DNA of 64,000 bases from Zoroaster sp. YZ-2022 (taxonomy: Eukaryota > Echinodermata > Asteroidea > Forcipulatida > Zoroasteridae): contig CM055837.1 of NCBI GenBank assembly GCA_029582265.1, forward strand, positions 15,908,369 to 15,972,368. Direction: 5' to 3'. Every line of letters starts with the position of its first letter. Positions within the stretch are counted from its first letter, which is position 1. The translations under genes were made by a program, and so were the position numbers. Under the pieces are notes generated by a model. That model worked only from the letters and a program-made list of their open reading frames with translations. It was not told where the DNA came from and made no database searches. Below are positions 1,843 to 57,300 of the stretch, one piece after another.

Positions 1843-2112
1843 CCCAATACTTTTTCCACTGGCTAGGAACTTTCCTGAATCCTCCAAAATTCATCAGTGC
1901 ACTTTTGGAAACATGCCCTTATCTTCAAAATGCACCTTGCATTTTCGTTGATCTTTCATATTCAGCACGGCCTGTACTTCTTGTCAGGTAGTACTAGTTT
2001 TGTCCCATTTGAAGAGGTGAAAGTACCAGTTTCCAACAGTGCTGAATTTTTCCAAAAAAGTGCCCTTGGACAAGTTGGAGGATTTTGCAGGATTTGGGGT
2101 GGTTATGGTTAA
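1843..2112. mobile_element. TTAACCCTAAC-group element, single terminal unit
   Basis: GGCTAGGAAC, CCTGAATCCTCCAAAATTCA, AGTGCACTTTTGGAAACATG, then GATTTTGCAGGATTTGGGGT and GGTTATGGTTAA. The core equals that of the 42-bp-array elements at 20.7 and 45.2 kb, but only one array unit is present. Confidence 0.8.
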
Positions 2113-2126
2113 TGAATAATTGGGTA

Positions 2127-5643: not shown

Positions 5644-5977
5644 TTAACCCTCCTACTGTTTGACCATTTGAAACCATTCAAAATTTCCACTTACCAAAAT
5701 GCCCATTGGTTTTGTACACACATGGTGATACCATTTGAACAGTGTTGGTAGCAAGCTTTACTACCATTCAAACCCATTCAAATGCATAGAGGGTCCATTG
5801 ATTCACCACTTGAGAAGTATCCAAACAAGGTTTTGTATTAGCTGACCTACCATTCAAAACCATTTGGGGGAATCAATACTGTACACAGTTATTTCACCAT
5901 TCAAAACCACAAAAGCGAATGGTTTCAAATGGTTGCATCAACTTGTCTGAAAAAGGTACCAGAAGTAGGAGGGTTAA
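5644..5977. mobile_element. TTAACCCTCCTACT MITE, family B
   Basis: Has the same termini as family A but the interior is built of CCATTTGAAACCATTC and CATTCAAA words, with GGTTTTGTACACACATGG. Other copies are at 11.86, 31.5 and 33.4 kb. Confidence 0.88.
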
Positions 5978-6000
5978 GAAACAATTGACAAATGCTTTAT

Positions 6001-6472: not shown

Positions 6473-6519
6473 CTCCTTTGCTTGTGAATGTACATAATTT
6501 GTTTTGTAGATGACTAACA

Positions 6520-6804
6520 TTAACTCTAAACCACTCCAAATCCATCAAAATCCTCCAAGGGGCACTTTTGGGGGAAAATTCAGCAACTTTGTTGGAAATT
6601 GGTACTTTCACCTCGCCAAATGGGACAAAATTACTACCTGGCAAGAAGTACAGGCCGTAAGTGCTGAATATTGAAAGATCAACGAAAATGCATGGTTTAT
6701 TTTGAAGATATTTTGGGCATGTTTCCAAAAGTGCACTGATGGATTTTGGAGGATTCAGGAAGGTTCCTAGCCAGAATACCTCGGGGGTTATATCTAGGGT
6801 TTTA
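6520..6804. mobile_element. TTAACCCTAAC-group element, inverted, single unit
   Basis: The reverse of the copy at 1843-2112: begins TTAACTCTAAACCACTCC and ends GGAAGGTTCCTAGCCAGAAT and CCTCGGGGGTTA. Confidence 0.8.
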
Positions 6805-8591: not shown

Positions 8592-8785
8592 CAGGCTTGT
8601 GATTTCTCAGGATTTTTCCCGATTTCAGGATTTTTTTTCCTTCAAATCTCCCTTTGCCTCAAAATTTTCTTGGAAGAAGAGAAGTAGCCACTAACCCTAA
8701 CCTTCCTACATCCTCCAAAATCCTCTTTGCTAAAGTGAAGGATTTTGAAGGATTGAGGTTACATGCTACATGCTCTTTGCTAAAG
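8592..8785. mobile_element. Repeat GATTTCTCAGG plus truncated TTAACCCTAAC element
   Basis: 8592-8690 (GTGATTTCTCAGGATTTTTC to CCCTTTGCCTCAAAAT) recurs at 47.89 and 55.30 kb. From 8691 CTAACCCTAACCTTCC starts one ~50-bp unit of the 9-kb element. Confidence 0.7.
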
Positions 8786-8872: not shown

Positions 8873-9324
8873 TATGGGAAACAAAAACTAAAGCTTGGTC
8901 AGTTTACCGCAGGATTGTGGCCACGGGAGATGAAGGACCTTGACTACGGCTCAATCGGTCTTTATCACTTGGGTAAGACCAGGCGTAGAACTTTTATTCC
9001 CTTAACCCTAATCTTCCCAAATCCTCCAAAATCCTCTTTGCTAAAGTGAAGGATTTTGAAGGATTGAGGTTACATGCGACATGCTCTTTGCTAAAGTGAA
9101 GGATTTTGAAGGATTGAGGTTACATGCTACACATGCTCTTTGCTAAAGTGAAGGATTTTGAAGGATTGAGGTTACATGCTACATGCTCTTTGCTAAAGTG
9201 AAGGATTATGAAGGATTGAGGTTACATGCTACAATGTACATGCTCTTTGCTAAAGTGAAGGATTTTGGAGGATTGAGGTTATTAGGCATACTTGCCTTTC
9301 CATGGTACACATACATGTAGTATT

Positions 9325-9472
9325 AGCCAGAGGGGTGTCTGGGTGTCTTTTGGACACTGTTTCATCTGTCATTTACATGTAAAAGTATTGTAAGTGAACA
9401 AATTGGACACCCTGTTTTGAAATTTCCAGCAAATTTGGACATCCTATTTCTAAATGCTGGCTAATACCTCCA
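9325..9472. mobile_element. Small repeat TATTAGCCAGAGG...CTGGCTAATA
   Basis: GTATTAGCCAGAGGGGTGTC at the left and AAATGCTGGCTAATAC at the right, with GGACACCCTGTTTT inside. Also at 18579-18685 and, inverted, 46541-46697. This copy is nested in the core of the 44-bp-array element. Confidence 0.75.
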
Positions 9473-9619
9473 TGGTACATGTACATCCATGTTTATTGTA
9501 GTGATTGCAAGGTCAGTGGACACTGTTTATTGCTCCATGCATGCAGGGAGGGTACCTGGCCATGTACATGTATCACAGATTAGAAACACATGTGTGCATA
9601 CATGTCATGTGCTTGCTTT

Positions 9620-11793
9620 ACTACTGAAGGATTTTGGAGGATTCAGGTTATGTGTAAGCAAATGGGCCTAGGGAGTTAGGAAGGATTCAGGTTATGTGTA
9701 AGCAAATGGGCCTAGGGAGTTAGGAAGGATTCAGGTTATGTGTAAGCAAATGGGCCTAGGGAGTTAGGAAGGATTCAGGTTATGTGTAAGCAAATGGGCC
9801 TAGGGAGTTAGGAAGGATTCAGGTTATGTGTGAGCAAATGGGCCTAGGAGTTAGGAAGGATTCAGGTTATGTGTAAGCAAATGGGCCTAGGGAGTTAGGA
9901 AGGATTCAGGTTATGTGTAAGCAAATGGGCCTAGGGAGTTAGGAAGGATTCAGGTTATGTGTAAGCAAATGGGCCTAGGGAGTTAAGGAAGGATTCAGGT
10001 TATGTGTAAGCAAATGGGCCTAGGGAGTTAGGAAGGATTCAGGTTATGTGTAAGCAAATGGGCCTAGGGAGTTAGGAAGGATTCAGGTTATGTGTAAGCA
10101 AATGGGCCTAGGGAGTTAGGAAGGATTCAGGTTATGTGTAAGCAAATGGGCCTAGGGAGTTAGGAAGGATTCAGGTTATGTGTAAGCAAATGGGCCTAGG
10201 GAGTTAGGGAGGATTCAGGTTATGTGTAAGCAAATGGGCCTAGGGAGTTAGGAAGGATTCAGGTTATGTGTAAGCAAATGGGCCTAGGGAGTTAGGAAGG
10301 ATTCAGGTTATGTGTAAGCAAATGGGCCTAGGGAGTTAGGAAGGATTCAGGTTATGTGTAAGCAAATGGGCCTAGGGAGTTATGTTTGTTTCAGGTTATG
10401 TGTAAGCAAATGGGCCTAGGGAGTTAGGGAGGATTCAGGTTATGTGTAAGCAAATGGGCCTAGGGAGTTAGGAAGGATTCAGGTTATGTGTAAGCAAATG
10501 GGCCTAGGGAGTTAGGAAGGATTCAGGTTATGTGTAAGCAAATGGGCCTAGGGAGTTAGGGAGGATTCAGGTTATGTGTAAGCAAATGGGACTAGGGAGT
10601 TAGGGAGGATTCAGGTTATGTGTAAGCAAATGGGCCTAGGGAGTTAGGGAAGGATTCAGGTTATGTGTAAGCAAATGGGCCTAGGGAGTTAGGGAGGATT
10701 CCAGGTTATGTGTAAGCAAATGGGCCTAGGGAGTTAGGAAGGATTCAGGTTATGTGTAAGCAAATGGGCCTAGGGAGTTAGGAAGGATTCAGGTTATGTG
10801 TAAGCAAATGGGCCTAGGGAGTTAGGAAGGATTCAGGTTATGTGTAAGCAAATGGGCCTAGGGAGTTAGGAAGGATTCAGGTTATGTGTAAGCAAATGGG
10901 CCTAGGGAGTTAGCAAGGATTCAGGTTATGTGTAAGCAAATGGGCCTAGGGAGTTAGGAAGGATTCAGGTTATGTGTAAGCAAATGGGCCTAGGGAGTTA
11001 GGAAGGATTCAGGTTATGTGTAAGCAAATGGGCCTAGGGAGTTAGGGAGGATTCAGGTTATGTGTAAGCAAATGGGCCTAGGGAGTTAGGAAGGATTCAG
11101 GTTATGTGTAAGCAAATGGGCCTAGGAGTTAGGAAGGATTCAGGTTATGTGTAAGCAAATGGGCCTAGGGAGTTAGGAAGGATTCAGGTTATGTGTAAGC
11201 AAATGGGCCTAGGGAGTTAGGAAGGATTCAGGTTATGTGTAAGCAAATGGGCCTAGGGAGTTAGCAAGGATTCAGGTTATGTGTAAGCAAATGGGCCTAG
11301 GGAGTTAGGAAGGATTCAGGTTATGTGTAAGCAAATGGGCCTAGGGAGTTAGGAAGGATTCAGGTTATGTGTAAGCAAATGGGCCTAGGGAGTTAGGGAG
11401 GATTCAGGTTATGTGTAAGCAAATGGGCCTAGGGAGTTAGGAAGGATTCAGGTTATGTGTAAGCAAATGGGCCTAGGGAGTTAGGAAGGATTCAGGTTAT
11501 GTGTAAGCAAATGGGCCTAGGGAGTTAGGAAGGATTCAGGTTATGTGTAAGCAAATGGGTCTAGGGAGTTAGGAAGGATTCAGGTTATGTGTAAGCAAAT
11601 GGGCCTAGGGAGTTAGGAAGGATTCAGGTTATGTGTAAGCAAATGGGCCTAGGGAGTTAGGAAGGATTCAGGTTATGTGTAAGCAAATGGGCCTAGGGAG
11701 TTAGGAAGGATTCAGGTTATGTGTAAGCAAATGGGCCTAGGGAGTTAGGAAGGATTCAGGTTATGTGTAAGCAAATGGGCCTAGGGAGTTAGG
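9620..11793 (+). repeat. 44-bp minisatellite, about 49 copies
   Basis: The unit is GGATTCAGGTTATGTGTAAG, CAAATGGGCCTAGGGAGTTA, GGAA. Most copies are identical or differ by one base (AGGGAGG for AGGAAGG, ACTAGG, TCTAGG). One unit near 10380 carries ATGTTTGTTT. This near-uniformity points to recent homogenisation. Confidence 0.97.
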
Positions 11794-11860
11794 GTTTAAA
11801 ACAAAGTTAATTTCTGCCTCAAGTATCACTTTTGAATGTTAAAATCAAGGAATTTATAGG

Positions 11861-13086: not shown

Positions 13087-14232
13087 ACTGTAGGACTGTG
13101 CATTTTCGGATATTTTTCGAACCGGATACCCGAAATCAGGAAAGTTTGGATACCCGGATACCCATTTTCATTCTTGTTGAAAACATGCCTCCTTTGGTGT
13201 ACAAATACATGTAAATGTGAACAAAATTGACCTTTATAATACAGAGGATACCATATTTAAGGACGATCAGAGCATACTGATCGAAACGTCGAGTTGTACC
13301 TCCAGTTCTTTTCAGAACTAATTACTACTCAATTGAGCATTTCACATGGTGTCACCGCAATTAGTCTTACTTATTTGAGTCTTAATGATTGGATACAATG
13401 TATCACAAATAGTTGGACAAAAGTGTATGGAAAATGTCCGTAAAATACTACAAATGCGTTATCAGAGTGTAATCTCTTGAATAAAATTGCTCCTAAAATA
13501 AAAGTGTAAACATTACATTGTTCAATAGTCAAAGATTTCTGTTCACACAGCTGAAATGGTAAGTCCCAATTTTAAAAAGACGTCAAAATCCTTCACTTTA
13601 GCAAAGAGGATTTTGGAGCTAGGCCCATTTGCTTACACATAACCTGAATCCTTGCTAACTCCCTAGGCCCATTTGCTTACACATAACTGAATCCTTCCTA
13701 ACTCCCTAGGCCCATTTGCTTACACATAACCTGAATCCTTGCTCTTACACAACCTGAATCCCCAATTTCAAACTTTCAGGGTCATACGGTGGATGAGTTA
13801 AATCAATTTTTGACAAATCGGGAATACCTTGTTTTAGCGGAGAAGGGGTGTAAATAACCTGATGCATTGGCGACCCCCTCGTTTTGCGATAACCTGAATC
13901 CTTTTCCCATGATGCCCATTTGCGTAATTTTGCCTTTCCTTGCTCAACTCCCTGGCCCATTTGTTATAACCGAATTAGTCTTACTTATTTGAGTCTTAAT
14001 GATTGGATACAATGTATCACAAATAGTTGGACAAAAGTGTATGGAAAATGTCCGTAAAATACTACAAATGCGTTATCAGAGTGTAATCTCTTGAATAAAA
14101 TTGCTCTTAAAATAAAAGTGTAAACATTACATTGTTCAATAGTCAAAGATTTCTGTTCACACAGCTGAAATGGTAAGTCCCAATTTTAAAAAGTCGTTTA
14201 CGGGTACTCGGAACCGAAAAATGGACCGGGTA
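13087..14232. mobile_element. hAT-like MITE, rearranged, with Penelope-like insertion
   Basis: The left part is 13087-13259 (GGACTGTGCATTTTCGGATA, GGATACCCGGATACCC). A Penelope-like half (13260-13375) replaces the middle. The right part occurs twice, at 13375-13597 and 13974-14232, nearly identical (GTCTTAATGATTGGATACAA to GTAAGTCCCAATTTTAAAAA). Confidence 0.75.
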
Positions 14233-15984
14233 ATGACAATTAGCAAAGAGCATGTAGCATGTAACCTCATCCTTCAAAATCCTTCACTTTAGCAAAGAGG
14301 ATTTTGGAACTCCTAGGCCCATTTGCTATTTGTAACACATAACCTGAATCCTCCCTAACTCCCTAGGCCCATTTGCTTACACATAACCTGAATCCTTCCT
14401 AACTCCCTAGGCCCATTTGCTTACACATAACCTGAATCCTTCCTAACTCCCTAGGCCCATTTGCTTACACATAACCTGAATCCTTCCTAACTCCCTAGGC
14501 CCATTTGCTTACACATAACCTGAATCCTTCCTAACTCCCTAGGCCCATTTGCTTACACATAACCTGAATCCTTCCTAACTCCCTAGGCCCATTTGCTTAC
14601 ACATAACCTGAATCTTTCCTAACTCCTAGGCCCATTTGCTTACACATAACCTGAATCCTTCCTAATTCCCTAGGCCCATTTGCTTACACATAACCTGAAT
14701 CCTTCCTAACTCCTAGGCCCATTTGCTTACACATAACCTGAATCCTTCCTAACTCCCTAGGCCCATTTGCTTACACATAACCTGAATCCTTCCTATATCC
14801 ATAGGCACATTTGCTTACACATAACCTGAATCCTTCCCTAACTCCCTAGGCTCATTTGCTTACACATAACCTGAATCCTCCTAACTCCCTAGGCTCATTT
14901 GCTTACACATAACCTGAATCCTTCCTAACTCCCTAGGCCCATTTGCTTACACATAACCTGAATCCTCCTAACTCCCTAGGCCTCATTTGCTTACAAATAA
15001 CCTGAATCCTTCCTAACTCCCTATGCCCATTTGCTTACACATAACCTGAATCCTTCCTAACTCCCTAGGCCCATTTGCTTACACATAACCTGAATCCTTC
15101 CTAACTTCCTAGGCCCATTGGCTTACACATAACCTGAATCCTTCCTAACTCCCTAGGCCCATTTGCTTACACATAACCTGAATCCTTCCTAACTCCCTAG
15201 GCCCATTTGCTTACACATAACCTGAATCCTTCCTAACTCCCTAGGCCCATTTGCTTACACATAACCTGAATCCGCCCTAACTCCCTAGGCCCATTTGCTT
15301 ACACATAACCTGAATCCTTCCTAACTCCCTAGGCTCATTTGCTTACACATAACCTGAATCCTTCCTAACTCCCTAGGCTCATTTGCTTACACATAACCTG
15401 AATCCTTCCTAACTTCCTAGGCCCATTTGCTTACACATAACCTGAATCCTTCCTAACTCCCTAGGCTCATTTGCTTACACATAACCTGAATCCTTGCTAA
15501 CTCCCTAGGCCCATTTGCTTACACATAACCTGAATCCTCCCTAACTCCCTAGGTCCGTTTGCTTACACATAACCTGAATCCTTCCTAACTCCCTAGGCCC
15601 ATTTGCTTACACATAACCCGAATCCTTCCTAACTCCCTAGGCCCATTTGCTTACACATAACCTGAATCCTCCAAAATCCTTCAGAAGTAAAGCAAGCACA
15701 TGACATGTATGCACAAATGTGTTTCTAATCTATTGTACATGGCCAGGGACCCTCCCTGCATGCACGGAGCAATAAACAGTGTCCAATGACCCAAGCACTG
15801 ATCTTGCAATCACTACAACAAACATGGATGTACATGTACCATGGAAAGGCAAGTATGCCTAATAACCTCAATCCTCCAAAATCCTTCTCTAATAGCAAAG
15901 AGCATGTAGCATGTAACCTCAATCCTTCAAAATCCTTCACTTTAGCAAAGGGGATTTTGGAGGATTTGGGAAGGTTAGGGTTAA
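13600..15984 (-). mobile_element. Inverted 44-bp-array element, rearranged left side
   Basis: The reverse complement of the element at 9.0-11.8 kb. A few units are at 13615-13760 and the main array of about 31 units at 14330-15665. The core follows at 15665-15850 and the ~50-bp unit and end AAGGTTAGGGTTAA at 15850-15984. A duplicated piece of a hAT-like MITE (13975-14232) splits the array side. Confidence 0.85.
14330..15665 (-). repeat. 44-bp minisatellite, inverted, about 31 copies
   Basis: The same unit as at 9.6-11.8 kb on the opposite strand (CCTAACTCCCTAGGCCCATT, TGCTTACACATAACCTGAAT). Copies differ more between themselves here (CTCATTTG, TATATCCATAGGCACA), so this array looks older. 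Confidence 0.95.
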
Positions 15985-19793: not shown

Positions 19794-21306
19794 GTATGTA
19801 CATGTGTATATATACATGTAGGTGTAGATTAAGTACCACATGTCAAGGTGCTACATTTTTAATTTTGCTGAAGTATTTATATTCTTGAGGTAGATTGATA
19901 GATTGGGAGTTGAAACAACCTTCATTGAGTTTGGTTTCTCCAAAATATATTTTCAATTGGACAAAATAGTGAATTTTTGTCGCTGGTTTATACTCTCCTG
20001 AAATAAGAACATCCGTGTTTGTTGTAGTGATTGCAAGGTCAGTGCTTGGGTCAGTGGACACTGTTTATTGCTCCATGCATGCAGGGAGGGTCCCTGGCCA
20101 TGTACATGTATCACAGATTAGAAACACATGTGTGCATACATGTCATGTGCTTGTTTTACTACTGAAGGATTTTGGAGGATTCAGGTTATGTGTAAGCAAA
20201 TTAAATGGGCCTAGGGAGTTAGGAAGGATTCAGGTTATGTGTAAGCAAATGGGCCTAGGGAGTTAGGGATATTACATACAAAGTGTATGCGAACATTTAC
20301 TACACGTGCATGTATATATGGGGTGTCGTGGCCGAGCGGTCTAGCTTACCGGATTCAAGTTCTGGTGTTAGCAACATAATGTGGGTTCGAATCACGGCCG
20401 TGACACTTGTGTCCTTGAGCAAGACACTTAATCATAATTGCTTCTCTCCACCCAGGGGTTAAATGGGTACCTGTGAAGGCAGAGTTGGTTTGCTCTATAT
20501 GCGCTAGAAATGGCAGCAATTGAGCTGTATACTCCCCAGGGAGCTGAGATGGTTTCAGGAATGATTTATGCGCCTTATGAGCCTTATGAGCAGGGATAAT
20601 AATATAATGCGCCTTGAGCACCACTTAGTTGGTGGATACGTGCGCTATATAAATCCACACATTATTATTATTATTATGTATTGTGTTTGTGCATTAACCC
20701 TAACCACCCCATATGCTGCACAATCCTCCAAGGGGTACATTTTGGGAAAAATTCAGCACTGTTGGAAACTGGTACTTTCACCTCTTCAAATGGGACAAAA
20801 TTACTACCTGGCAAGAAGTACAGGCCATAAGTGCTGAATATGAAAGATCAACGAAAATGCATGGTGCATTTTGAAGATTAGGGTACATGCACGTTTCCAA
20901 AAGTGCACTGATGGATTTTGGAGGATTCAGGAAGGTTCCTAGCCAGAATACCTTCTGTATAGGGGGTTAGGGTTTAGGAAGGTTCCTAGCCAGAATACCT
21001 ACATGTATAGGGGGTTAGGGTTCAGGAAGGTTTCTAGCCAGAATACCTAATGTATAGGGGGTTAGGGTTCAGGAAGGTTCCTAGCCAGAATACCTATAGG
21101 GGGTTAGGGTTCAGGAAGGTTTCTAGCCAGAATACCTATAGGGGGTTAGGGTTAAGGAAGGTTCCGAGCCAGAATACCTAGGGGGTTAGGTAAAAGGCAT
21201 ACACACATTTAAAGTGTACATGTAGGTGTGTTATTACACTGAACACAAAGCATTGCTAACTACTTTTCAGTAGTATTATAACATTGATAGATATTATATG
21301 GGGAGG

Positions 21307-42300: not shown

Positions 42301-45300
42301 ATTCTCCTTCCCATTTAAAAAGGCTATGGCCTGCTATAAATTAGGCTTGGTATAATTTATAATCATGAATAAATGTTTGTGCAGATTTTTGTTCTCTTAA
42401 CCCTTTAAACTCAGGCCTGTTTTGGTGAATTTTGTATGTGCTGCGGTTTTGTATAAAAAATTCTGCCTTCTCAAAAACCTTACCACATTATATACCATTG
42501 GAAAGCTTACATATGGGCCTACATTTTTATCAAAGTTTTGACCCCCACCAACCTTTTGGAAAAAAATGGCGTACAGATGTTGTGTAAGAATTGATTTATT
42601 TCATCGGACGCCGGCGTCCGATATTCTACAGGGCTGAGTTTAAAGGGTTAAGCAACCTTCTCTTAAACAACCTTGCCAGCAAATTGCCAAATCCTTTGGA
42701 GAAAGAAATGCTATTTTGCTTGTTTCTAACATTTTGCATTTTCCAACAACTTCTTTATACTGAGTACATGTATGAAAAAATATTGACCATTTCCACAGGT
42801 GTGGACACCATCGGAGAACCGTTCAACCTTGTCACACAAGAGCCAAACACCCCTTCACCATCACACAAACCTCCACAGTCCCCCTTTCAGCGTTCGCCCT
42901 CCGGGAACAGCCTCATTCAAAGAACCAGTGCATCTAGAAATGACCCCAGTATCTTACGCAGGAAGCACTCACAGGAATTCATGAAGAAAATGGAGGAACA
43001 GCAACGGAAAACCCGGAAGTCGTCGTCGTCGGAGTACAGCGAGGGGGGGACCTCGTTCGACATGACAACGCCTGAAGAAGAGATGTTCATTGAGACGGAA
43101 GGGAATGCTAAGTTTACTTTGGGAGGTGATCAAATACACATCGGGCTAACGGAACCATCAAGTGAGAGTGGATTAACATCAGGAACAGTCTTGTTGAAAC
43201 CACCTAACATTCTTGTGTATACTGGATCGGATGAGACAGATTCTTCCAGATATGAGGGTACTGTGGCCTTCCTTGAGAAATTTCTCCGTCGGGATCGCTA
43301 CGTCATCTACCAACTTAAGCAAGCCCAGTTGTTGACCCACCCATGGGCTGATAATTGTTCTCTACTCATCATTGTGACCAGTGCCAAGACAATACCAGAA
43401 AATGCTCTCAAGAAGTGTACCGACTACGTCAGGTCCGGCGGACATCTTCTTGTGCTTAGTGGAAATAGCGTCCCGTCTAAAACGCAACACATTGTCAATT
43501 CTATCAACTACTCTGCAATCCTTGACAACAAAACCATCGAATTTAAGGCGCTGTGTTCTGGAGACGCGTCATCTGTTGGTATGTTCACTGGTAATGATGT
43601 CAAAGTTCTTGCAGAGAGCCAGGGAAACGCAGTTATCACAGAAACGTCTTTTGAAGGAAGCGTGGGGAAAATTATCGCATCACAAGTGAGTGTTCTCCAG
43701 TGTTTTAACCAGTTCGCACCGGGAATAAAAAAAAATTTCCGAACCCCCGTGGCGGGTTTATTTTTATCGCACAAACACGAACAATGGTGCTCACCAGAGC
43801 ATGACCGGGGAGACCGCGTCTTCCACCGTATGCTTATGGCTCGTTGCCACGTCGACCGGGAATCTATACAAATATTCCCGAGAATCCTGTGGCGTGTTTA
43901 GACGCTCTCCGATCCGCTGTCCAAAAAAAAATGTGCATGAATACACGGCCTCCGACGCGAACTGGTTAAATTGACTTTGGTGCATGTACATGTAGATTAT
44001 AGAAGTTAGACAATGCTAGACCAACATTCTAGTCACATTTCGACTTCTGACGGAGAAATAACTTACATGTGTACACAATTGGTTTTACTTTTTGCCCTTA
44101 TACCGATGTATGTATTCTCAGTGGTTTCCAAGTGTCTGTGGACAAAATCCCGGGCGGGATTCAAACAAAGGACCTCCTCCTTATTAGTACAGACGTCTTT
44201 ACCTCACGACATTGGACGAAAACGTCCGTCAAGGATTAGTACTAGTAAAATATAAACTCAAGTTAATAAAATGCTAGCCCGCTGTTTTAACCCTTCTACA
44301 ATCAGTGCATTTTTTTGAAACAACCCATTCAGGCCACTCCAAGCCATTAGCTGTTGCCAGTGGCCTCCTGTGGTTACCCTTCTGTGCACTGTCACACCAC
44401 TGAGATTACAGGGTAAAGTGGTCTCCCATCGATACATTGCAGGCCATACTAATATGTTCAAACATTTACAGTGGCCTTGGGTGGCACACAGTTGATTTTG
44501 TAAGATTACTTGGAAAGGACAGCAGGCTTGTACATGTATGTACTGAAGGTTGCTCAAGAACAGAATTTTGTTGATCGGAGTGGCCTCTATGTGTAGGAGG
44601 GTTAATCCTCAGCATACAAGTAACCACACAATTTATTATACATGTATGTACCTAACAGCCATGGGCGTGTACAGTCTTCGATTGGCCAGAATCAAGCCCT
44701 TTAAATATCACTTTTATTTACAGTTTCTGACATCCGAATTTCATGTTTTTTTTGTTCGTTTAATATCGATATTATCTTGCTTTTTAAATTATATTTTATT
44801 GGGAGGTCTCTTGAGCCAAACACGGCGATCTTAAAAGTACATGAAAAGGAGTAGTTACATGTAAGAAACAAATGCACTTTTTGTATTTAGTCTGCCTGTA
44901 CTTTTCCACTGCCTACAAGAGGGTTTTTAAGAGGGGCTCTTTAGCAAACATAAATTTTATTTATGTTAGCTCAGTGGAAGAGCCAGTGGCATATTGCCAT
45001 AGTTAAGAATTGTTGACCGCGGCCAGTACTTGGATGGGGAGACCATTCCATGAATTGTTTGCAATTGCCTGGCTAGTCTAGGGGCACATGTGGTAGGACC
45101 CTATAATATCATCAGGGTCTGCGTCCTACATGTACGTAAAGCTGTAGGTCCTGTGTGTTGTGTAACCCTAACTCCCTAGGTATTTTGGCTAGGAACCTTC
45201 CTTAACCCTAACCCCCTATAGGTATTCTGGCTAGGAATCTTCCTTAACCCTAACCCCCTATAGGTATTCTGGCTAGGAACCTTCCTTAACCCTAACCCCC

Positions 45301-48300
45301 TATAGGTATTCTGGCTAGGAACCTTCCTTAACCCTAACCCCCTATACATGTAGGTATTCTGGCTAGGAACCTTCCTTAACCCTAACCCCCTATAGGTATT
45401 CTGGCTAGGAACCTCCCTGAACCCTAACCCCCTATAGGTATTCTGGCTAGGAACCTTCCTTAACCCTAACCCCCTATAGGTATTCTGGCTAGGAATCTTC
45501 CTTAACCCTAACCCCCTATAGGTATTCTGGCTAGGAACCTTCCTTAACCCTAACCCCCTATAGGTATTCTGGCTAGGAACCTTCCTTAACCCTAACCCCC
45601 TATAGGTATTCTGGCTAGGAACCTTCCTGAATCCTCCAAAATCCATCAGTGCACTTTTGGAAACATGCCCTTATCTTCAAAATGCACCATGCATTTTTGT
45701 TGATCTTTCATATTCAGCACTTATGGCCTGTGCTTCTTGCCAGGTAGTAATTTTGCCCCATTTGAAGAGATGAAACTACTTAAGTTTCCAACGGTGCTGA
45801 ATTTTCCCCAAAAAGTGCCCCTTGGAGGATTTTGCAGGATTTGGGGTGGTTAATGCACATAAAAGAACCCAGGACACTTCTTGTGAAAGAGAAGGGGCTC
45901 GCTCTGGTGTTTCAGAAATGGCAGCAAAATATGCCAAAATGCTTTGAAAACTTGCTTCTTTTTTTTTGGAAATACAAATGCCGTCATTTTTGCAAAATAA
46001 TCGTGATAAAAATGGTTACCGAAGGGGCACTTTTTTTTTTACTGTTAAACTCGGCTTCTGACAACTATTTTGTGAAAAAATATTTCATTTGTAAACTATT
46101 TGTATTTTTTTCTAAGAGGAAATTATCAATGTTCCAATGAAAACTAACAAATTCGGAAATTGCTGACTACATGTATAGAACAGATACATCTTTAACATTG
46201 GAATGCGCATTATTAACAAATTGCTACACTTATATTGTACACATTTGTACATGTACAGTCATGGGCGGATCCAGAACATTTTTAGGGGGGGGCTGAGAAT
46301 CAAAAACAATTATTTTTCAGTACTACAAAGGGTGCCGCCACTTCCTATGCGCAACGGTTAGTACAGTACTAAGTAGGTCACCTCCTTATGTTTATCCCGC
46401 ACACTGTGGGAATGGGAGTGCGTTTTCCCCTCCCCTCCCCCTCTCTCTCTCTTTTTCTCCCTTTAAAATTTTTTTTTTTATACGATTTTAGGGGGGGCTA
46501 CAGCCCCCTTAGCCACCCCCCCCCCTGGATCCGCCAATGACAGTATGCAAGGTGTTAGTCGAAATTTCAAAACAAGGTGTCCAAATTGTTGATTTAAAAC
46601 ACGATTACATGTATAAATGACAGATGAAATACATAGGGTGTCCAAAATTGAAACAGGGTGTACAAAAGACACCCAGACAACCCTCTGGCTAATACTGTGC
46701 ATGTGCATGTATCATTTATCTAATTGACCTACAATGTAGCAAGTAATAGTGTATTTATACACTTGTACATAATTTACAGTCTGAAGTTGCAGAAAACTGA
46801 ATTAATGTACCATGGGACAGACAGAGCTGAATCCCGTGGGACAAACTTAAGAAATAGTCGCCAGCAAATTTAATATTTTCTTTTTAACCTGGCCCGGGGT
46901 TAGATTTACATTACCAATGTTGTACCTTCCCTTCAATGTATATCTTGATTTGTACAAAGAATTATATGGGGGGTGGATTGGGGTGCAAAAGGGGATGAGG
47001 TAAGATCTAAGGAATATTTCATGGTATAAAGCAAAAGAACTGAACATCATATTTCTGGCCAAAAAATTGTATTAACCCTAACTCCCTAGGCCCATTTGCT
47101 TACACATAACCTGAATCCTCCAAAATCCTTCAGTAGTAAAACAAGCACATGACATGTATACACACATGTGTTTCTAATTTGTGATACATGTACATGGCCA
47201 GGGACCCTCCCTGCATGCATGGAGCAATAAACAGTGTCCACTGACCCAAGCACTGACCTTGCAATCACTACAACAAACATGTACATGTACCATGGAAAGG
47301 CAAGTATGCCTAATGACCTGAATCCTCCAAAATCCTTCAGAAGTAAAGCAAGCACATGACATGTATGCACACATGTGTTTCTAATCTGTGATACATGTAC
47401 ATGGCCAGGGACCCTCCCTGCATGTTAATAATGATATTATCTTTCAAAATACACTGTACATGTATACAGGTGTACATATGATTGATATAAATTAAGCTGA
47501 ATACACATGTACATGTACAGAGTTCATTGAACATTCTGTACATGTGCAAGTTAATGGAATAAAATTGCGTATAATTGCATCTCGGCATGATCCAAGCTTT
47601 AATGGGGGGGGGGGGGACTGTGCATTTGCAATATCTCCAAATGTCATTTAAAGATCGACGCATTATTCCATGTGTTTCTCTATTTCACCGACAGTTTGAT
47701 TCTTAAAGCCAGTGTTATACCTATGTACATGCATACTATACGATTTTGGTTAAAAATGTTATGTGGATGGCTGCATCCATATTCAATGTACAATACAAAA
47801 GCTATCCTGTGTAAGTTTCAGCTTAATTTTAAGTGTTTCAAAACAAGAAAATAGTAAAAATGCATGACAGATTATTCAGATTTATTCCACAGGCCTGTGA
47901 TTTCTCAGGATTTTTTTTACAAATCTCCCTTTGCCTCAAAATGTTATTGAAAGAAGAGAAGTAGCCACCAAGGAAAGAAATTAGTAGCCTGTATTGTGTC
48001 CAAACCTCTAGTTTCTTGTTTGTGGGGATGTGGAGAGTCTGTAAATCCTCCAAAATTAAACATCCAGGAGGTTCAGGGGGCTTTGTCCTCTAGACCAAAG
48101 GGAGACCCAGGCCTGCTACCCACAGGAGGTTCAGGGGGCTTTGTCCTCTGGACCAAAGGGAGACCCAAGCCTGCTACCCACAGGAGGTTCAGGGGGCTTT
48201 GTCCTCTGGACCAAAGGGAGACCCAGGCCTGCTTCCCACAGGAGGTTCAAGAGGCTTTGTCCTCTGGACCAAAGGGAGACCCAGACCCACTACCCACAGG

Positions 48301-51300
48301 AGGTTCAGGGGGCTTTGTCCTCTAGACCAAAGGGAGACCCAGGCCCGCTACCCACAGGAGGTTCAGGGGTTTTGTCCTCTAGACCGAAGGGAGACCCAGG
48401 CCCGCTACCCACAGGAGGTTCAGGGGGCTTTGTCCTCTAGACCAAAGGGAGACCCAGACCCGCTACCCACAGGAGGTTCAGGGGGCTTTGTCCTCTAGAC
48501 CAAAGGGAGACCCAGACCCGCTACCCATTTTTCAGGGATTTTTACTTTTGTCTTATCACACCCATGATTCCAACTTGGAATTTCTGTCTTTGGATGACAG
48601 ATGACACTTTGGGAATTACCTGTATTTTACTAATTTTATGAAGAAGAAAAAAGTCTGTTTTCTGGTCTCCTCACGTGTCGCCCCAGACCCACGTGTCAGC
48701 ATTTTTAATTTTCTGTTTTTTTAATAATAATAATAATAAAGATTTGTAGCGTGCACATATCCACCCTGCTGGGGCACTCAAGGCGCGGAAACAAAGAAAA
48801 AACATGAATACAAACAATATACAATGATAGCATAGGGGAAAAAATTATGTACCGATATACATGTACCTACAATGCAATTACAAATATACATCATCTTTGA
48901 AGAATTGTGACATAAGATGAGTTTTAAGCATCGACTTAAATCTAGTTATACTATGACAAGATTTGAGTTTAGTTGGAAGATGATTCCAGAGTCTCGGAGC
49001 CGCGACAGAAAAAGACCTATCACCCCAGTTCCCTTTTGAAGTTGGTTCCTTTAGGAGTGACATGTTGCTGGAGCGCAAATTGCGTGATGGAGTGTAGACT
49101 TTAAGCAGTTCAGAAATATAAATTGGAGCAATGTTATTAAAAGATTTGTGAACAATTTGTGAAAAAAGTTTTTGCTATGAAACGATGTCCAATTGCAGTC
49201 AAAATTGCTGGATCGATTGGAATTCTGCCGTGCTGTGTTTTAAACAACTTTTTCACATACGTGTAGAGGTAATGAACGTTTGCCCGATTTGTGAGGCCTC
49301 TCTTAGCCACCATACGTTTTTATGGGAAATTTGGTCCCTGTGTGTATGTACATGTGGCAAAAAAAAAAGATTACCCCCCAAAAAAGAAAAAAAGTGTGTC
49401 ACTGCACCGATTTCTTTAGAGACTTCTTTAGCCTAAGCAATAAACCCTTTCACGGTAATATGCGCCATGTTTTTGACGGGGCAAAATTGTTTATTTCGAA
49501 CATTCGTTGCCGTCTGCGACCCAGCGCTCGAACTTCACACACGCGTCTGGAATGTACGTGAAGTTCGAGCGCTGGGTCGCAGACGGCAACGAGTGTTCGA
49601 AATAAAAAAATTTGCCCCATCAAAAACATGGCGCATATTACCGTGAAAGGGTTTATTTGATGTTGTCATACATAGAGAGTTGTACATGATGTTCTCAAGT
49701 TAAACGTTTCCTATTTCATTGGCCCTTTAAACAAGCTTTCGTCACATGTACAATCCTCAATGTCTATCAGTCCTCCCTGGCTGTTATTTGACACTAACCC
49801 GGTGTTAGCTTGGTATTAAATTAACAGCTGTTGAACTAGTTAGTCTGCGGAGGAAGGTATCATTCCCACACAGTGAATAGGTTTTTTAATAATCCAAGTG
49901 ACTTACCAGTGTAAATTTGTGTTCATTTGACAGAGAAACATGTAGCTAGAAAGAGTTACATAGTTTGCCCATGGGGTAGAATTGGTTAGCCAGAGCTATT
50001 AAATTAACACCTATTTTGTTGGCACCAATTTGATAGCTCTGATAATAACCAAACAATCTGTTTGATTTTTTTTGCATGTGCCAATCGAATGAAGTGTCGA
50101 TCAAGCTGTGAATTTGTATACTTCATGTGTATACAGTGTACCACAGAAGTAACGATTTATGATTTTTAGCCTCCTACTACTACTACAAGGGTCAAAATCA
50201 GTCAAAATGTTGATATACTTCGTCCCAAGGTATATCTAGTGCACTTAAAAGTCAAACACTGTCAAACCTTACGTGTAAGGTCAAAATGAGTCGACCATTT
50301 TTGACTAGTAAAAGCATTGTCTGGTATTGTTCAGGGTGGTCAAAATGACAGTAAAAACCAGTCACAAATGCCCCTGTGTGCTCATTTGGGTCAACAGTCA
50401 AAACAGGCAGTTACTGGTTTTAACCTCTGTAGCAACTTCCCACTAAAGTGCAGCTAGAGTAGGAGGGTTAATACGTTGATGTTTGTTGTAGTGATTGCAA
50501 GGTCAGTGGACACTGTTTATTGCTCCATGCATGCAGGGAGGGTCCCTGGCCATGTACATGTATCACAGATTAGAAACACATGTGTGCATACATGTCATGT
50601 GCTTGCTTTACTATTGAAGGATTTTGGAGGATTCAGGTTTTTGGAGGATTCAGGTTATGTGTAAGCAAATGGGCCTAGGGAGTTTGGGTTAAGAGAGTAA
50701 CAACATGGCTGCCCAGTGGCTTCAATGTTAGTACCTGACCCTCTATTCAGATAGTATTATAGAGGTCTGGGCCCCATTTCATAGAGCTGCTAAGCGGAAA
50801 TTATTGCTGAGAAAATTTATCTGCTAAACAAAATTTAGTTGAGAACCAGCAACAAGCAAGATGCATTACTTGACAATTTGGATGGTAACCTTTTTTTGCT
50901 TTTCTGTGCTTTTCTGTGCTTTTCTGTGCTTAGCAGCTGTATGGGCGACGGGTGGGTAACAACAATCTGTAGCAATTTTTTAAATCTTATTTTTTTAGAT
51001 ATTTTCATTTCAGGTTCCTTTTCATCTTGTCTCCCCGGAAAGCATGGTCCCTGACACCAAAGCCTTCACTGAACTTAAGCAGTCCAATGAGATCCGACAT
51101 ATGGTGATCCTTGACCTCCTAGGTCGCCTGGGGTTACAGTGCGCGACCTCTGATGTGCCTGATTTGACCTGTGGTTATTTGCTCGGTATCAATGAGGTAA
51201 AAAACTAATGTGAAATCTTTGGTTGGAGAAAGCCCAAAAAGGAAGCAAGTTTGTGTGATTTTTTATTATTTTTTATTTATTTATTTATTTATTTTTTAAT

Positions 51301-54300
51301 TTTTTTTTTTATACAATTAAGAATAATTAGAAATATGCCTTTCAGAAAGAACCTGCTACACGTACATGTAGGTTCGAATTGTAAGGCCATTAACTACCGT
51401 TTTGCAAGAATTAGAAATGTTAATTGCACATCAATAAATATCTAGTCCAATATGTTATCCAATATTATTTGTGTTCATTGGTCCAACATTTTTTTTTGTA
51501 TCTTGATTCTTGTAAAGTATGGATGCATTTACATACATATTGCCAAGAATGTATACTATACAACTCAAAACAATTTAGGGAACACCGGATTTTTAACATC
51601 AAATAGGTTTGAAATGTTCCATGAACTGGGATTTTCATTTGCAACCCCCTCTCTCTTTCAGTAGACATGTCATGAAATGTGTAATCACTACATGCATCCT
51701 TTATCATCTGTTTCATTGTGCAGTTGTTTCTCATCAATTCTGTGAAACATTGTGTTTATCTGAAATAAATGATCTTGCTTTAACTGAGATTATTCCGGTG
51801 TTCCCTAAATTGTTTTGAGTAGTATATTTGAAACCTTCTGACATGTACAACTGTACGTGTATGATGTACATTTGTACACGTACTTTACCCAAGGTATGTT
51901 ATTTTGTTTCATTGGTCTTGTACCTTGATTCTTGTGTTGATGCATTTACATACATTTTATCTATACGGCCCCCCAAAAAAGTCTCTGGTTTCTGGTCATC
52001 GGTCGGCTTCAAAATCGGTGCAGTGACAACTTTTTTTTTTTTATAATCTTTTTTTTTTTCCAACAGGGAAATACGTGACCAAATTTCCCATGTCCAAAGT
52101 ATGGTGACTAAGAGAGGCCTCACAAACGTTACCCCTATGTGAAACACTCATTTACATTTTGTAAAACATAGCACGACAGAATTCCAATCGATCCAGCAAT
52201 TTTGGCTGCAATTGGACATCTTTTCATAGCAAAATAAAAATAAAAATTTAAAAATGCCAACGGAGACCAGAAACAGGAAACCTTTGTTTTTGGCCTAATG
52301 TGTAAACCTTCTGACATGCATCTAGAATTTTATGATGTACATTTACATTGTGCATGTACTGTGTACATGTGTCCTTTACTCAAGGAAAATATGTTATTTT
52401 AATATTGGTTCTTTAACCCTAACTCCCTAAGCATTGTTACTGAACAATAAAAATCCTTCAAAATCCTCCAACTGCTTTTGTTGTCTAGGGAGTTAGGGTT
52501 AAGGGAGGAGGGCCAAAGTCGTGGTACAGCTAAGCCTTTGAGAAGCCCGGCCAGGCCTAGGTTACTTGGCCTCCTAATCTGTCTTTTGTGAGTCATAATC
52601 CTGTAACAATACAGTACCTGCCAATCAACATAACCTGGGCTTCTGGAGGGCCTAGCCCAGGCAAGCAGAGCTCCTTATATAAGCCAGTAGGCAGGAGAAA
52701 AGCCTAGGCCTGGCCGGGCTTCTCAAAGGCTTGGCTGTACCATGATTTTGGCCCTTGTCCCTTATAAAGTATTGTCACATTTTCATACATTTTGCCAAAA
52801 AAATGTATATAGCTTTAAAGCTTCTGACATGCATTTGGAATATTATGATGTACCATATATATACTTTACTCAAGGACAGTATGTTATTTTTGTTAAGTGG
52901 TGAAAAGATTTTCTTGTATTGATTCTTAGGCCAAAAAAAATAAAAATTGTTGAGTTGCCCTCCAGTGAAAATATTTGAAGGGGTCGGTCGGTCGGGATTT
53001 TTTTTAATTTATTTATTTTTTCCCCTCCTTGACTGTCATTTTAAGATTGAAATGCATTGGAACTGAAACCACATGCCATGTTTTTCATTTGTATACCTAT
53101 CAGTAAGGAATTTTGCTTCAGAATAAAAGTATCCCAAGCATTTTTGTTGTACTTTTTGCTGTGATTGACACAGCAAATTCATACATATTGCGTGCAATGC
53201 TCAACATGCAACATGTGAGTGGCCACTCGATTTGAAAACGTGTAGATCAAGTCGCAATCGTTGACACACGTACAGTGCGGGGAGCCAGTGCACAACGTGT
53301 GAGGGCCATTTGATTTGAAAACATGTACCGGTAGATTGAGTCGCAATCGTTGACATACAAAACAGTGCGCGAAGCCAGTGGAAAACATGTGAGGGGGCCA
53401 TTCGATTGGAAAATGTGTAGATTTGAGTCACAATCGTTGGCACACAGTGTGTGCGAAGGCAGTGCACCATGTGAGGGCCGGGGCCATTCGATTCGAAAAC
53501 ATGTAGATTGAGTCTTGGGTACTGGTAAATTTACCGGTAAAAAAAGTGGAAAATTTCACAAATCAAACGTATTATGTTTTATACAAAGAAAATTGGTAAG
53601 TTTCATTAATAAATAGGCCTATGAATGACGGGAAAAAAAAACGAAAAAAAAACGACCAGAGATTTCAGCACTTTTGGGTTGGTCGGTGGAGGGCAATTCA
53701 ACATTATTTTTTTTTTGCCTTATAAAGTATGGATGCATTTACATACACCAAAAATGCGTACTGCTTTAAACCTTCTGACATGTATTTGGTATTTCATGGT
53801 GTACATTTACATGACTCAAGCCTAGTATGTTATTTTATTTCATTGTCGAACATTTTATCTTCTTGTAGCTGATTTATGACAGTTATGACAGTGTTATCTT
53901 TCGTTGGTGTTTATTACACCAGGGCGAGCATATGACTTCAAGCCACATGTGTTGTAAGGTTCACGTACCGTACATGCGGTAGAATTTAGACATGTTGGTA
54001 TGCGTGCTTTCTTGCTATGACAGGAATTCGTCATTATGATGAATGTAATTTCGGTATCTGGGTTGTTGGAATCCCGCATAACTGTTGTCGCCTCTTGAGT
54101 GCATCAGTTACCAACCGTTTATTATTTTTTTGACGGAGTAAGGGTGTTCCGACTGTCATGTTCATGTAGCCGCCAACCATTTCTTATTTTTTTATATTAA
54201 AAGAAATCTTTGCAAAGGGGAATCGTTGTATAAATATGTGGGAAAAAATAGATTGGTAAACCATTGGTAAACTCACTTATATGAGTAATGATAAACAACT

Positions 54301-57300
54301 GAATTGTGAGCATTGCATTTCATTACCTTGTGCTATTATTAACCCTAACCGCCTAACTATTTTGGCTGGGAAAATTCCCGAATCTGCCAAAATACAACAC
54401 CATGCACAAACACTATCACCCAGCTGGTGGACTTAGCTGGAATTGGGACACCTGGCCCCATGCAAAGTATCCCTGTCAGGGCTATACAGTACTGAGTCCA
54501 TCAAAATACAACACCATGCAGTAACACTACCACCCAACTGTTGGACTTAGCTGGAATTTGGACACTCGGCCCCATGTAAAGTATCCCTGTCTGGGCTATA
54601 CAGTACTGAGTCCATCAAAATCCAACACCATGCAGTAACACTACCACCCAACTGTTGGACTTAGCTGGAATTGGGACACTCGGCCCCGTGCAAAGTATCC
54701 CTGTCTGGGCTATACAGTACTGAGTCCATCAAAATACAACACCATGCAGTAACACTAGCTGGTGGACTTAGCTGGAATTGGGACACCCGGCCCCATGCAA
54801 AGTATCCCTGTCTGGGCTATACAGTACTGAGTCAATCAAAATCCAACACCATGCAGTAACACTACCACCCAACTGTTGGACTTAGCTGGAATTGAGACAC
54901 ACGGCCCCATGTAAAGTATCCCTGTCAGGGCTATACAGTACTGAGTCCATCAAAATCAAACAAATCCTGCTGTTGGAGTTTGAATGGTTTAGGGTGGTTA
55001 TAGGGTTAATGAGAAAATAATAAAAATGCATTCAAAAATAATGACTGGCAAACACCAACTTCAATATAACTCTGACCCCCTACAGGTATTTCACAGACAC
55101 CCAGCTGCATGCAACGTACATGTATAATGCAACAACAGAAAAGTGTGCAGGCTACTCAATGCAACAAGATCCACCGGCTACATGTAGAACAATAGTTTTT
55201 TTGTTCTCTGCTTTGTTCTTTTCCCCTCTGCTGAGGGCAACAAGATGCAACAACTTTTAACATTTGTTGCATGTTGTTGCATTGAGCACGGTAATGGCAG
55301 ACCTGTGATTTCTCAGGATTTTTCCCTGATTTCAGGATTTTTTTTTACAAATCTCCCTTTGCCTCAGAATGTTCTTGAAAGAACAATGTTTTTGCAAATT
55401 TGTTCTTGTTAGGTTAGGTCTGAAAACTCAGAGAGATATTAGATACTGACAAAGTTTACCAAGAACCATAGAAGATTGTAACAAATGCCACCTGGATGTA
55501 CAGATATAATAATAATATTTCATTCTTACTTATATAGTGCATTTTGTATAATGTATTGTACACGTGTATCCCAATGCCCTTTACATTACTTCCCCTGGTC
55601 ACTGGGCCAATAGCATTCCTGTAATCTTTCTCAGCTCCCTGGGGAGAGTATACAGCCCATTATGTGCAACCATTTGGCTCTACAGGGCTAATCAAACACA
55701 ATAACCATCTCTACCCTCACAGGTATCCATTTATACTCTTGGGTGAAGAGAAGCAATTACAGTAAAGTGTCTTGCTCAAGGTCATTCGCAGCCAGGATTG
55801 GGAACCCACATACTGATGACACAGCCATCAGAACACAAGACCAATGTACATGTACTTAACCGCTCGGTCATGGCATCCCATCCCATAATGATTATAGTTT
55901 CTCCAACCATCCATTTTGAAATATTCACCAGACAATCATTTATATAAACCCATTTCGACGGCATGGGTTCACTGCCTAGTAAATGGAGAATGTTGTAACA
56001 TTTCGTAACAAATCTTCAATCAGCAATGTGGTATGCTGCCCTCTGTTGGCAGGTGGAGATGTGACACTGAGTTTGCACAATTCGCTCAGTGCACATCGTA
56101 GCCCTCTAGCGGTGAATTTGCACCCAGTGTCTTGAGGATAGCCACTTTTGCGTCGTGTGAGCATTGTGCGTACACTTTATGTGCATATGTTATGGTACCA
56201 CACATGCGTGTACTTCTACCAGCCAATGATCGCTGGAGATATTCCGCGCGTACGCACATCAACTGCAAAATACGGCAAACGCGATGCACTATCGCTACCC
56301 TTTCGCCCACAGTGATATAACAACATGCGCCCTCAACAGCTCTTGCACGGTGCAAATACTGACACAAAGTTATTATTAATTTGTTTTAAATCTGGACAAT
56401 GATGTCTGGTCAACCATTCTGAGATTCAGAGTAGGAAAATCATTGCTATACATTTCCCTCTAACCAAACGTCCAATCAAAGCACAACACTAACTACAGGT
56501 ACGTTTTTCTATTCCACAGCAATTGTCCAGTGTGTTTCTGAAATCCATCCAGCCAAGTCTCAAAAAAGACCAGCTATCAAGCCGTTACGTCACCATGCAA
56601 TTTTCACCTGACCCCAGCAAGGTCGGCAAAGTGACCCCTGACCTTCTCCCAGTCATCACTGGCCAAAGTTCCCCCCAAGGTGGCGCTTTCAACTTTGACA
56701 TCTACAAGAAGAACTTGAGTGCCAAGACTCTAGGAAACGTGGTGCTGTACACGGAGGTGATACCAACTACCATGAACCTCTTCGAAAGGTACACGTTTGG
56801 AACGTTTAATTAAAATCTGCCCTTAAAAGGACATTATCGTCACGATCAGAGCAGACTTTCAACGGGGCATGGAATCGGTACCCTCGTTTAAGATAATAAT
56901 AACAATAATACAGAAGATTTATAATGCGCGCATATCCACCAAGAAGTGCTCAAGGCGCTTTACAGTAAACAAGAAATCATACAATAGCATAACAATACAA
57001 TAGCAAATGCAATATAATACTAAACAAAAGAAAAAAAATGCATAAGATGAACACAGTGACTGAACATTACTTGTTCATTATGCAGCAGCAACTGTAATAT
57101 GACCTCATCATGTGGAGTATTATTTTCAGTCACTGAGTTTATCTAAAACTAGCACTCTGATTCCATGCCCTGTTGATCGTGACGATATTGCCCCATGAGG
57201 TAAGATTAGTACAAAAGTTGAACACACTTCACGTTGTGCAAATCATTCACAGCAAATTGCATGGGGTATTGAATCCAAGAGATATGCAACTTCTATGTGG

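What the first reader, a model, noticed from the sequence alone, without database searches (positions are those of the whole stretch)
1843..55009. TTAACCCTAAC elements as carriers of unrelated minisatellites
Elements with TTAACCCTAAC...GTTAGGGTTAA ends and sub-terminal TCCTCCAAAATCC words enclose tandem arrays of 42 bp (45.2, 20.7 kb), 44 and ~50 bp (9.0 kb), 87 bp (23.7 kb) and 114 bp (54.3 kb). A 91-bp member (52412-52502) holds only the ends. Copy number ranges from 1 to about 49 between copies of the same element. The family appears to spread and then expand minisatellites, which would seed satellite DNA across the genome.
Basis: partly seen in the sequence, partly recalled or inferred. 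Interest (0 to 1): 0.75.

Follow-up and report, generated by a model that had tools for sequence, protein, structure and literature searches.

The report
TTAA transposons tandemising their own ends
A very abundant family of short jumping-DNA elements in an unnamed animal genome turns stretches of its own sequence, often its very end, into repeat arrays that grow and shrink after landing; this is a real and well-documented case of a known phenomenon rather than a new one.

Summary
The elements are non-autonomous DNA transposons with CCCTAAC…GTTAGGG ends that insert at TTAA and duplicate it: five joined-flank comparisons show a single TTAA at the uninserted site. The ends are far above chance, and the two end patterns counted genome-wide each have thousands of exact copies. 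Array length varies as claimed: the 44-bp unit runs from 1 to 49 copies. Five complete segmental duplicates of one insertion, right flanks 97–99% identical, hold 5, 10, 2, 3 and 2 units, so arrays change in place after insertion.

The interpretation needs correcting. The arrays are not unrelated cargo. The 42- and 44-bp units are the element's own long terminal segment; the 87- and 114-bp units are homologous to each other. Nor do these elements explain most tandem repeats: 2 of 53 arrays in a 200-kb spread sample lie in them. Termini and target site fit piggyBac, and the genome holds at least 116 piggyBac transposase matches, but the partner was not found. Precedents (frog Xmix/Xstir, Tetris, oyster HINEs, coral CMITEs) make this a new member of a known kind.

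The parts
1859..2112 (+). A-type element, about one 42-bp-type unit, long end degenerate, 3' end ..GTTATGGTTAA
   Evidence: (self-match to 45611-45852, 87%)
6518..6790 (-). A-type element with a single 42-bp-type unit; long end degenerate
8691..8782 (+). B-type short-end fragment with one 50-bp unit
9002..11798 (+). B-type element: TTAACCCTAAT start, 50-bp array 9034-9281 (about 5), core, 44-bp array 9638-11793 (49), GTTAGGGTTTA end
13583..15984 (-). B-type element, 44-bp arrays 14308-15670 (31) and 13619-13739 (3), two 50-bp units 15863-15950, TTAA end at 15984
20013..20267 (+). B-type copy with two 44-bp units, truncated at both ends
20694..21190 (-). A-type element with six 42-bp units; short end intact, long end degenerate
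23679..26962 (+). D-type element with 87-bp array 23736-26806; a copy of its own left flank and a second TTAACCCTAAC lie inside at about 25845-25960; degraded 3' end (approximate)
45163..45853 (+). A-type element with eleven 42-bp units, each carrying CCCTAAC; 3' ..GGTTAA
47072..47424 (-). B-type element with one 44-bp unit (unexpanded end) and a partly duplicated core
50479..50692 (+). B-type copy with one 44-bp unit, beside a TTAACCCTCCTAC-family element that ends at 50471
52413..52502 (+). F-type 90-bp element, 13-bp TIR CCCTAACTCCCTA inside TTAA..TTAA
   Evidence: empty site shown for a 99%-identical relative at L020:2714-2803
54339..55010 (+). E-type element with 114-bp array 54388-54956 (about 5), ends TTAACCCTAAC..ATAGGGTTAA
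   Evidence: relatives L049, L052, L053, L057

Best explanation
These are several related families of MITE-like, non-autonomous DNA transposons that insert into TTAA, duplicate it, and are most likely moved by piggyBac-type transposases. They share one plan: a long end (TTAACCCTAAC..CCCTAGG..AATCCTCCAAAATCC, about 57 bp) and a short end (TTAACCCTAACC..CCCAAATCCTCCAAAATCC, about 33 bp). The tandem arrays are amplified pieces of the element itself: in A and B the same stretch of the long end, from the CCCTAAC tip to the subterminal AATCCTCC word; in D/E an inner stretch of about 87-114 bp. Shown: TTAA duplication, end pairing, dispersal, self-derived units, in-place copy-number change. Inferred: duplication began by slippage or unequal exchange between short similar words (AACCCT / AATCCT in A and B; CAAAATCCAACA around the 114-bp unit), array-bearing copies then transposed (independent insertions share the same unit junctions), and a piggyBac transposase supplies mobility.
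For: Single TTAA at five uninserted sites for elements of 80, 90, 413, 420 and 537 bp, the last with six 44-bp units. Of 40 end pairs tested 9 had a spanning hit; 6 were aligned, 5 clean, 1 (L037) unclear, 3 not aligned. Of 35 end pairs listed, 30 have TTAA at both ends. Inward pairing for 23 of 29 ends in the 200-kb sample. 5,127 exact hits of end plus subterminal word and 3,469 of the B long-end tip, backward control 0. One-unit copies are common: L006 and L007 (one insertion duplicated), L019 and L030 (likewise), L021, L023, L041, L047, L049, window 47077 and 50645. Five complete paralogs of one insertion, right flanks 97.1-98.7% identical, have 5, 10, 2, 3, 2 units with a shared first-unit variant. 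Two-type end alignment. D87/E114 homology score 46 against a maximum of 26 in 200 shuffles. piggyBac transposase family PF13843: 116 scored matches, all above cut-off, 0 of 14 control genomes. A CCCT tip and TTAA fit the published piggyBac hallmark (PMC2872659); Kolobok ends are 5'-RR (PMC9587614).
Against: No autonomous partner with these ends was found: three 481-bp stretches downstream of transposase matches did not reach an element end. Outside the F type the perfect inverted repeat is only 7-8 bp, shorter than usual for piggyBac. Several window copies have a degenerate or missing TTAA at one end, and 11 of 35 listed pairs have a mismatch at an end. The A and B unit sequences are themselves only weakly alike (12 of 200 shuffles score as high), so 'the same stretch' rests on position in the aligned ends. 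The 50-bp unit near the short end is subterminal and the origin of its spacer is not explained. Mean identity within 44-bp arrays (0.960) is barely above that between arrays (0.952), so strong local homogenisation is not shown. Of the five clean empty sites only one (L003) carries a mapped array.
Confidence: 0.8

Rival explanations
1. Kolobok-type (or another TTAA-targeting superfamily) MITEs rather than piggyBac-type.
For: Kolobok also duplicates TTAA, and the best precedent for arrays inside a TTAA MITE, Xenopus Xmix/Xstir, is placed in Kolobok (PMC6004289 passages). Another TTAA repeat with an AGGG-type start exists here (the target of the L003 insertion). TIRs outside the F type are short.
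Against: Kolobok termini are 5'-RR (PMC9587614); these start CCCT. piggyBac transposases are abundant in the genome. Kolobok transposases were not searched.
Confidence: 0.13
2. One reading: the elements are carriers that pick up unrelated minisatellites and disperse them as satellite seeds.
For: Different families hold units of different sequence and length; A42 against D87 or E114 is no better than shuffles.
Against: A and B units are the element's own long end; one-unit copies are common; D87 and E114 are homologous; 51 of 53 sampled arrays lie outside these elements.
Confidence: 0.06
3. Helentron/HINE-like elements carrying central repeats, as in oysters.
For: Same look: short elements with tandem repeats, dispersed through the genome (PMC7492417 abstract).
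Against: HINEs insert at TT without target-site duplication (PMC7492417 section 9); here TTAA is duplicated and the ends are inverted repeats.
Confidence: 0.02
4. Copy-number differences are assembly artefacts of collapsed or misjoined repeats.
For: No reads were available; the D array contains a displaced copy of its own flank.
Against: Short arrays of 2, 2, 3, 5 and 10 units with distinguishable units should be easily spanned by reads (inference), and paralogs differ in the order of unit variants.
Confidence: 0.05

Closest known systems
Xmix / Xstir, Xenopus T2-family MITE with amplified internal segment (Hikosaka & Kawahara 2004, not seen itself; reference entries and passages in PMC6004289, and PMC2872659)
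   Same: TTAA-inserting MITE whose own segment is amplified in tandem
   Different: Placed in Kolobok, internal segment; here CCCT termini and, in A and B, the terminal segment itself is the unit
Tetris foldback element, Drosophila virilis (PMC4079207, abstract and section 19 read)
   Same: Tandem repeats inside the TIR proposed to derive from the outermost TIR part, copy number differing between two alleles, source of satellite arrays
   Different: Foldback with 220-bp units in both TIRs; here short TIRs, 42-44-bp units at one end, TTAA target
CMITE, Acropora corals (PMC2872659, parts 1-3 of 4 read)
   Same: TTAA target, CC[C/T]T tip, ~100-bp members like the 90-bp F type, tandem arrays
   Different: CMITE arrays are of whole elements; here of part of the element
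Cg_HINE, Crassostrea gigas (PMC7492417, abstract and section 9 read)
   Same: Dispersed short elements carrying satellite-like arrays
   Different: Helentron, no target-site duplication
Galileo, Drosophila (PMC3573991, search listing only; its TIR repeats as extra transposase sites from PMC4079207)
   Same: Tandem repeats within TIRs
   Different: P-element superfamily, long TIRs

Membership tests
piggyBac-type MITE | TTAA target-site duplication | tested here: met
   Single TTAA at uninserted sites for the L003, L013, L020, L039, L041 elements; one further case, L037, unclear
piggyBac-type MITE | CC[C/T]T tip (hallmark as given in PMC2872659) | tested here: met
   CCCT next to TTAA at both ends in 24 of 35 listed pairs with exact ends
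piggyBac-type MITE | TIR of 12-19 bp ('generally', PMC2872659) | tested here: inconclusive
   13 bp (CCCTAACTCCCTA) in the 90-bp F element; only CCCTAAC(C) is shared between the two ends of A, B, E and G; the same paper describes MITE families with shorter TIRs
piggyBac-type MITE | Autonomous relative with the same ends encoding a piggyBac transposase | tested here: inconclusive
   116 PF13843 matches scored of 4548 first-look candidates; ends of only three sampled, none reached
piggyBac-type MITE | No coding capacity | not tested
   Most listed pairs are 80-1000 bp long; no dedicated coding test was run on them
Kolobok-type MITE | 5'-RR..YY-3' termini | tested here: not met
   Termini are 5'-CC..GG-3' next to TTAA
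Helentron/HINE | Insertion at TT without target-site duplication | tested here: not met
   TTAA duplicated
Foldback element (Tetris, Galileo) | Long internally repetitive TIRs on both sides | tested here: not met
   Long and short ends differ and arrays sit at one end, or have different units at the two ends

The most novel reading that the evidence does not exclude
The transposase itself makes the arrays: a terminal piece bounded by two TTAA sites is cut out and re-inserted at the neighbouring TTAA, so each unit is a working transposon end and array length tunes mobility. In the sister family TTAACCCTCCTAC..GTAGGAGGGTTAA (L039:9119-10000) the 74-bp unit runs exactly from an internal TTAA of the element to its terminal TTAA, with TTAA kept at 7 of 8 visible junctions; in the 42-bp array at 45.2 kb 7 of the 8 junctions listed by the script read TTAACCC. 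Against it: in the other two A arrays TTAA stands at 1 of 5 (20.7 kb) and 0 of 3 (L046) junctions, and B junctions lack it.
Probability: 0.1. Interest if true: 0.75.

Novelty: new member of a known kind. Interest (0 to 1): 0.45.

Why it matters
It gives a clear natural series, from one-unit elements through 2 to 10 (or more) units at one and the same insertion to 49 units elsewhere, for how a transposon end becomes a minisatellite, with thousands of copies in one assembly. That makes the step from mobile element to tandem repeat countable, and it lets one ask whether extra transposon ends help or hinder movement (piggyBat is held back by its own subterminal sequences, PMC11707139, passages only).

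Tried and rejected
Helentron and Kolobok filing: rejected on target-site duplication and termini (above). Strong homogenisation inside arrays: tested on 44-bp units and not shown (0.960 within, 0.952 between). Telomere origin of CCCTAAC: considered, not pursued; the ends are one base off a telomere-type repeat (recalled), and TTAA duplication explains the tip. Naming the organism: one protein search with a 304-aa piece of the biotin-protein-ligase-like exon found nothing at E 0.001. Partner transposase: three 481-bp stretches beside PF13843 matches did not reach an end. Genome-wide counts of the 44-bp internal junction, the 74-bp junction and the 87-bp unit were asked repeatedly and never answered.

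Literature searched; no paper describing this family was recognised in those listings, which do not cover most subscription journals.
Full report
WHAT IS THERE. The window lies in an unnamed animal genome of 1.0 Gb in 616 contigs (C22:15908369-15972368; 'animal' is my reading of its gene and repeats). Exact TTAACCCTAAC or its reverse occurs 19 times in 64 kb against a shuffle mean of 0.10, and the subterminal word TCCTCCAAAATCC or its reverse 15 times against 0.00. Self-comparison and unit mapping sort the copies into related types: A (42-bp unit; 1.86, 6.5, 20.7, 45.2 kb), B (44-bp unit at the long end, 50-bp unit near the short end; 8.7, 9.0, 13.6-16.0, 20.0, 47.1, 50.5 kb), D (87 bp; 23.7 kb), E (114 bp; 54.3 kb) and F (90 bp without array; 52.4 kb). 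A further type without a mapped array, G, is seen in loci only (L013:984-1396, L031, L037, L041).

THEY ARE TTAA TRANSPOSONS. Of 35 end pairs found in the window and L001-L050 with one mismatch allowed per end, 24 have both ends exact and 30 have TTAA at both ends; the list includes two window pairs that are not proper elements (20694-20976, a piece of a longer one, and 23514-23682) and some duplicates of one insertion. Joining the two flanks of 40 pairs (these 35 and five looser window copies) at one TTAA and searching all held sequence gave spanning hits for 9; six were aligned. Five show a single TTAA in the uninserted paralog: L013:984-1396, L020:2714-2803 (a 90-bp F type), L003:997-1533 (B with six 44-bp units), L039:3935-4014 and L041:387-806. 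L037 was unclear, and the hits for L031, window 45163 and window 54339 were not aligned. In twenty 10-kb stretches, one at 12.0 Mb on each of contigs C1-C20, 23 of 29 ends pair inward within 1 kb, none only outward, 6 stand alone. That sample holds 11 paired elements covering 1.9% of 200 kb, which would mean tens of thousands in the genome (inference from 11). Exact patterns give 5,127 places (end plus subterminal word) and 3,469 (B long-end tip), each with zero backward controls.

THE ARRAYS ARE THE ELEMENT'S OWN SEQUENCE. Aligned ends fall into two kinds: a long end, TTAACCCTAAC..CCCTAGG..AATCCTCCAAAATCC, in A, B, E, F and G, and a short end, TTAACCCTAACC..CCCAAATCCTCCAAAATCC, at the other side of A, B and G; D has a short-type and a long-type end as well, both worn. 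Copies with one unit are common. The 42-bp unit of A and the 44-bp unit of B are the same stretch of the long end repeated, from the tip to the subterminal word, in two diverged families; by sequence alone the two units are only weakly alike (12 of 200 shuffles as high). The commonest junctions read CTTCCT[G/T]AA[T/C]CCTAACC in A and GAATCC(TTCC or TCCC)TAACTCC in B, which fits duplication between the similar words AACCCT and AATCCT (inference). Eight 114-bp arrays fetched by unit alone show the E-type end, complete or partial, at nine edges and other DNA at one. In the cleaner copies the unit is bracketed by the direct repeat CAAAATCCAACA (L052, L055). D87 and E114 align over 84 columns with a score of 46 (200 shuffles, maximum 26); D87-F90, C50-D87, C50-F90, B44-C50 and B44-F90 also beat all shuffles. 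A42-C50, A42-D87, A42-E114 and B44-E114 do not; A42-B44, B44-D87, C50-E114 and E114-F90 are weak, and A42-F90 was reached by 1 of 200 shuffles. So 'unrelated minisatellites' is wrong in part.

THE ARRAYS CHANGE IN PLACE. On C1 between 7.4 and 8.7 Mb the same insertion sits in eight fetched segmental duplicates. Five are complete, with right flanks 97.1-98.7% identical over about 400 bp (left flanks 83-96% over the 291-390 aligned columns), and hold 5 (L008), 10 (L011), 2 (L012), 3 (L015) and 2 (L018) 44-bp units; L013 (at least 10) and L017 (at least 14) are interrupted or cut, and L009 is disrupted. All seven with an array share a first-unit variant (AGGAATC), while inner units differ in number and order. 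Near the short end L015 has three 50-bp units and the other six two. Pairing listed B ends on C1 (78 short-end and 80 long-end places taken from lists that the tool cuts at about 100) gives 19 elements of 302 to 2456 bp, six of them 372 bp or shorter.

LIMITS. In the 200-kb sample only 2 of 53 tandem arrays (period 20 or more) lie in these elements, against 9 of 16 in the window by my reading of the table, so the window is unusually rich. Whether arrays ever become long satellites was not seen. Identity within arrays is hardly above that between arrays. Reads were not available, so lengths rest on the assembly.

WHO MOVES THEM. TTAA duplication and a CCCT tip, with a 13-bp TIR in F, match the published piggyBac hallmark (PMC2872659, parts 1-3 read); the other types share only 7-8 bp between their ends. 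Kolobok, the other TTAA superfamily described in the papers seen, has 5'-RR tips (PMC9587614, part 1 of 6 and passages read). The genome has at least 116 piggyBac transposase matches above the family cut-off, about 100 of them listed without a stop inside (my count), and 0 of 14 control genomes match. A transposase between these ends was not found, so membership is likely, not proven.

COMPARISON. Arrays grown inside a TTAA MITE are known from Xenopus Xmix/Xstir (PMC6004289 passages); TIR-derived repeats that become satellites from Tetris (PMC4079207); whole-element arrays from coral CMITEs (PMC2872659); satellite-carrying elements from oyster HINEs (PMC7492417). What is added here is the repeated use of the same terminal segment in different families and the copy-number series at one insertion. 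I file it as a new member of a known kind.

BOLDER READING. In the sister family TTAACCCTCCTAC..GTAGGAGGGTTAA one sampled element (L039:9119-10000) has an array whose 74-bp unit runs exactly from an internal TTAA to the terminal TTAA, with TTAA kept at 7 of 8 visible junctions. That is what re-insertion of TTAA-bounded pieces by the transposase would leave, but a four-base match at a slippage junction would look the same, and only one such array was seen. The A arrays are mixed: TTAA at 7 of the 8 junctions listed at 45.2 kb, but at 1 of 5 at 20.7 kb and 0 of 3 in L046; B junctions lack it. Having set these counts side by side I lowered this reading's odds slightly, from 0.12 to 0.10; the confidence of the main reading went from 0.82 to 0.80 for the short TIRs.

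Noticed in passing
window 268-582, 5644-5977, 7304, 11861-12236, 26959-27297, 31513-32174, 33368-33676, 44287-44605, 50165-50471, 63748; L039:9119-10000: A sister TTAA family with ends like TTAACCCTCCTAC..GTAGGAGGGTTAA (up to two mismatches); in L039 its last 74 bp are tandemly repeated from TTAA to TTAA.
   Followed up: partly
window 31555-31826: A 99-bp array lies inside a TTAACCCTCCTAC-type element.
   Followed up: partly
window 25845-25960: Inside the 87-bp array there is a copy of the element's own left flank (about 23569-23680) followed by a second TTAACCCTAAC, suggesting a larger duplication that took in the flank.
   Followed up: no
window 61501-61956; L031:8139-8783; L004:380-1200: A dispersed 81-bp minisatellite without TTAACCCTAAC ends of its own, present in arrays at several loci; in L031 it directly abuts an element end.
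   Followed up: no
window 48065-48527: 58-bp array preceded by ..AATCCTCCAAAATTAAAC, a near match of the subterminal word; not resolved.
   Followed up: no
window 18735-18906, 61965-62138, 57043-57194, 6000-6159 and ten further places in nine loci: Another abundant repeat, (TT)TAAAGGGGCAGTATCGTCACGATC.., the target of the L003 insertion; its own start suggests a further TTAA-type family.
   Followed up: no
window 42588-43898: Exon encoding a biotin-protein ligase N-terminal domain (PF09825, E 3.8e-8); the elements at 45.2, 47.1, 50.5, 52.4 and 54.3 kb lie downstream of it.
   Followed up: no
G000 whole genome: At least 116 piggyBac transposase matches, with listed open frames of 411 to 729 aa, in several size classes.
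   Followed up: partly
window 60273-60346: One tRNA match above Rfam's gathering score.
   Followed up: no
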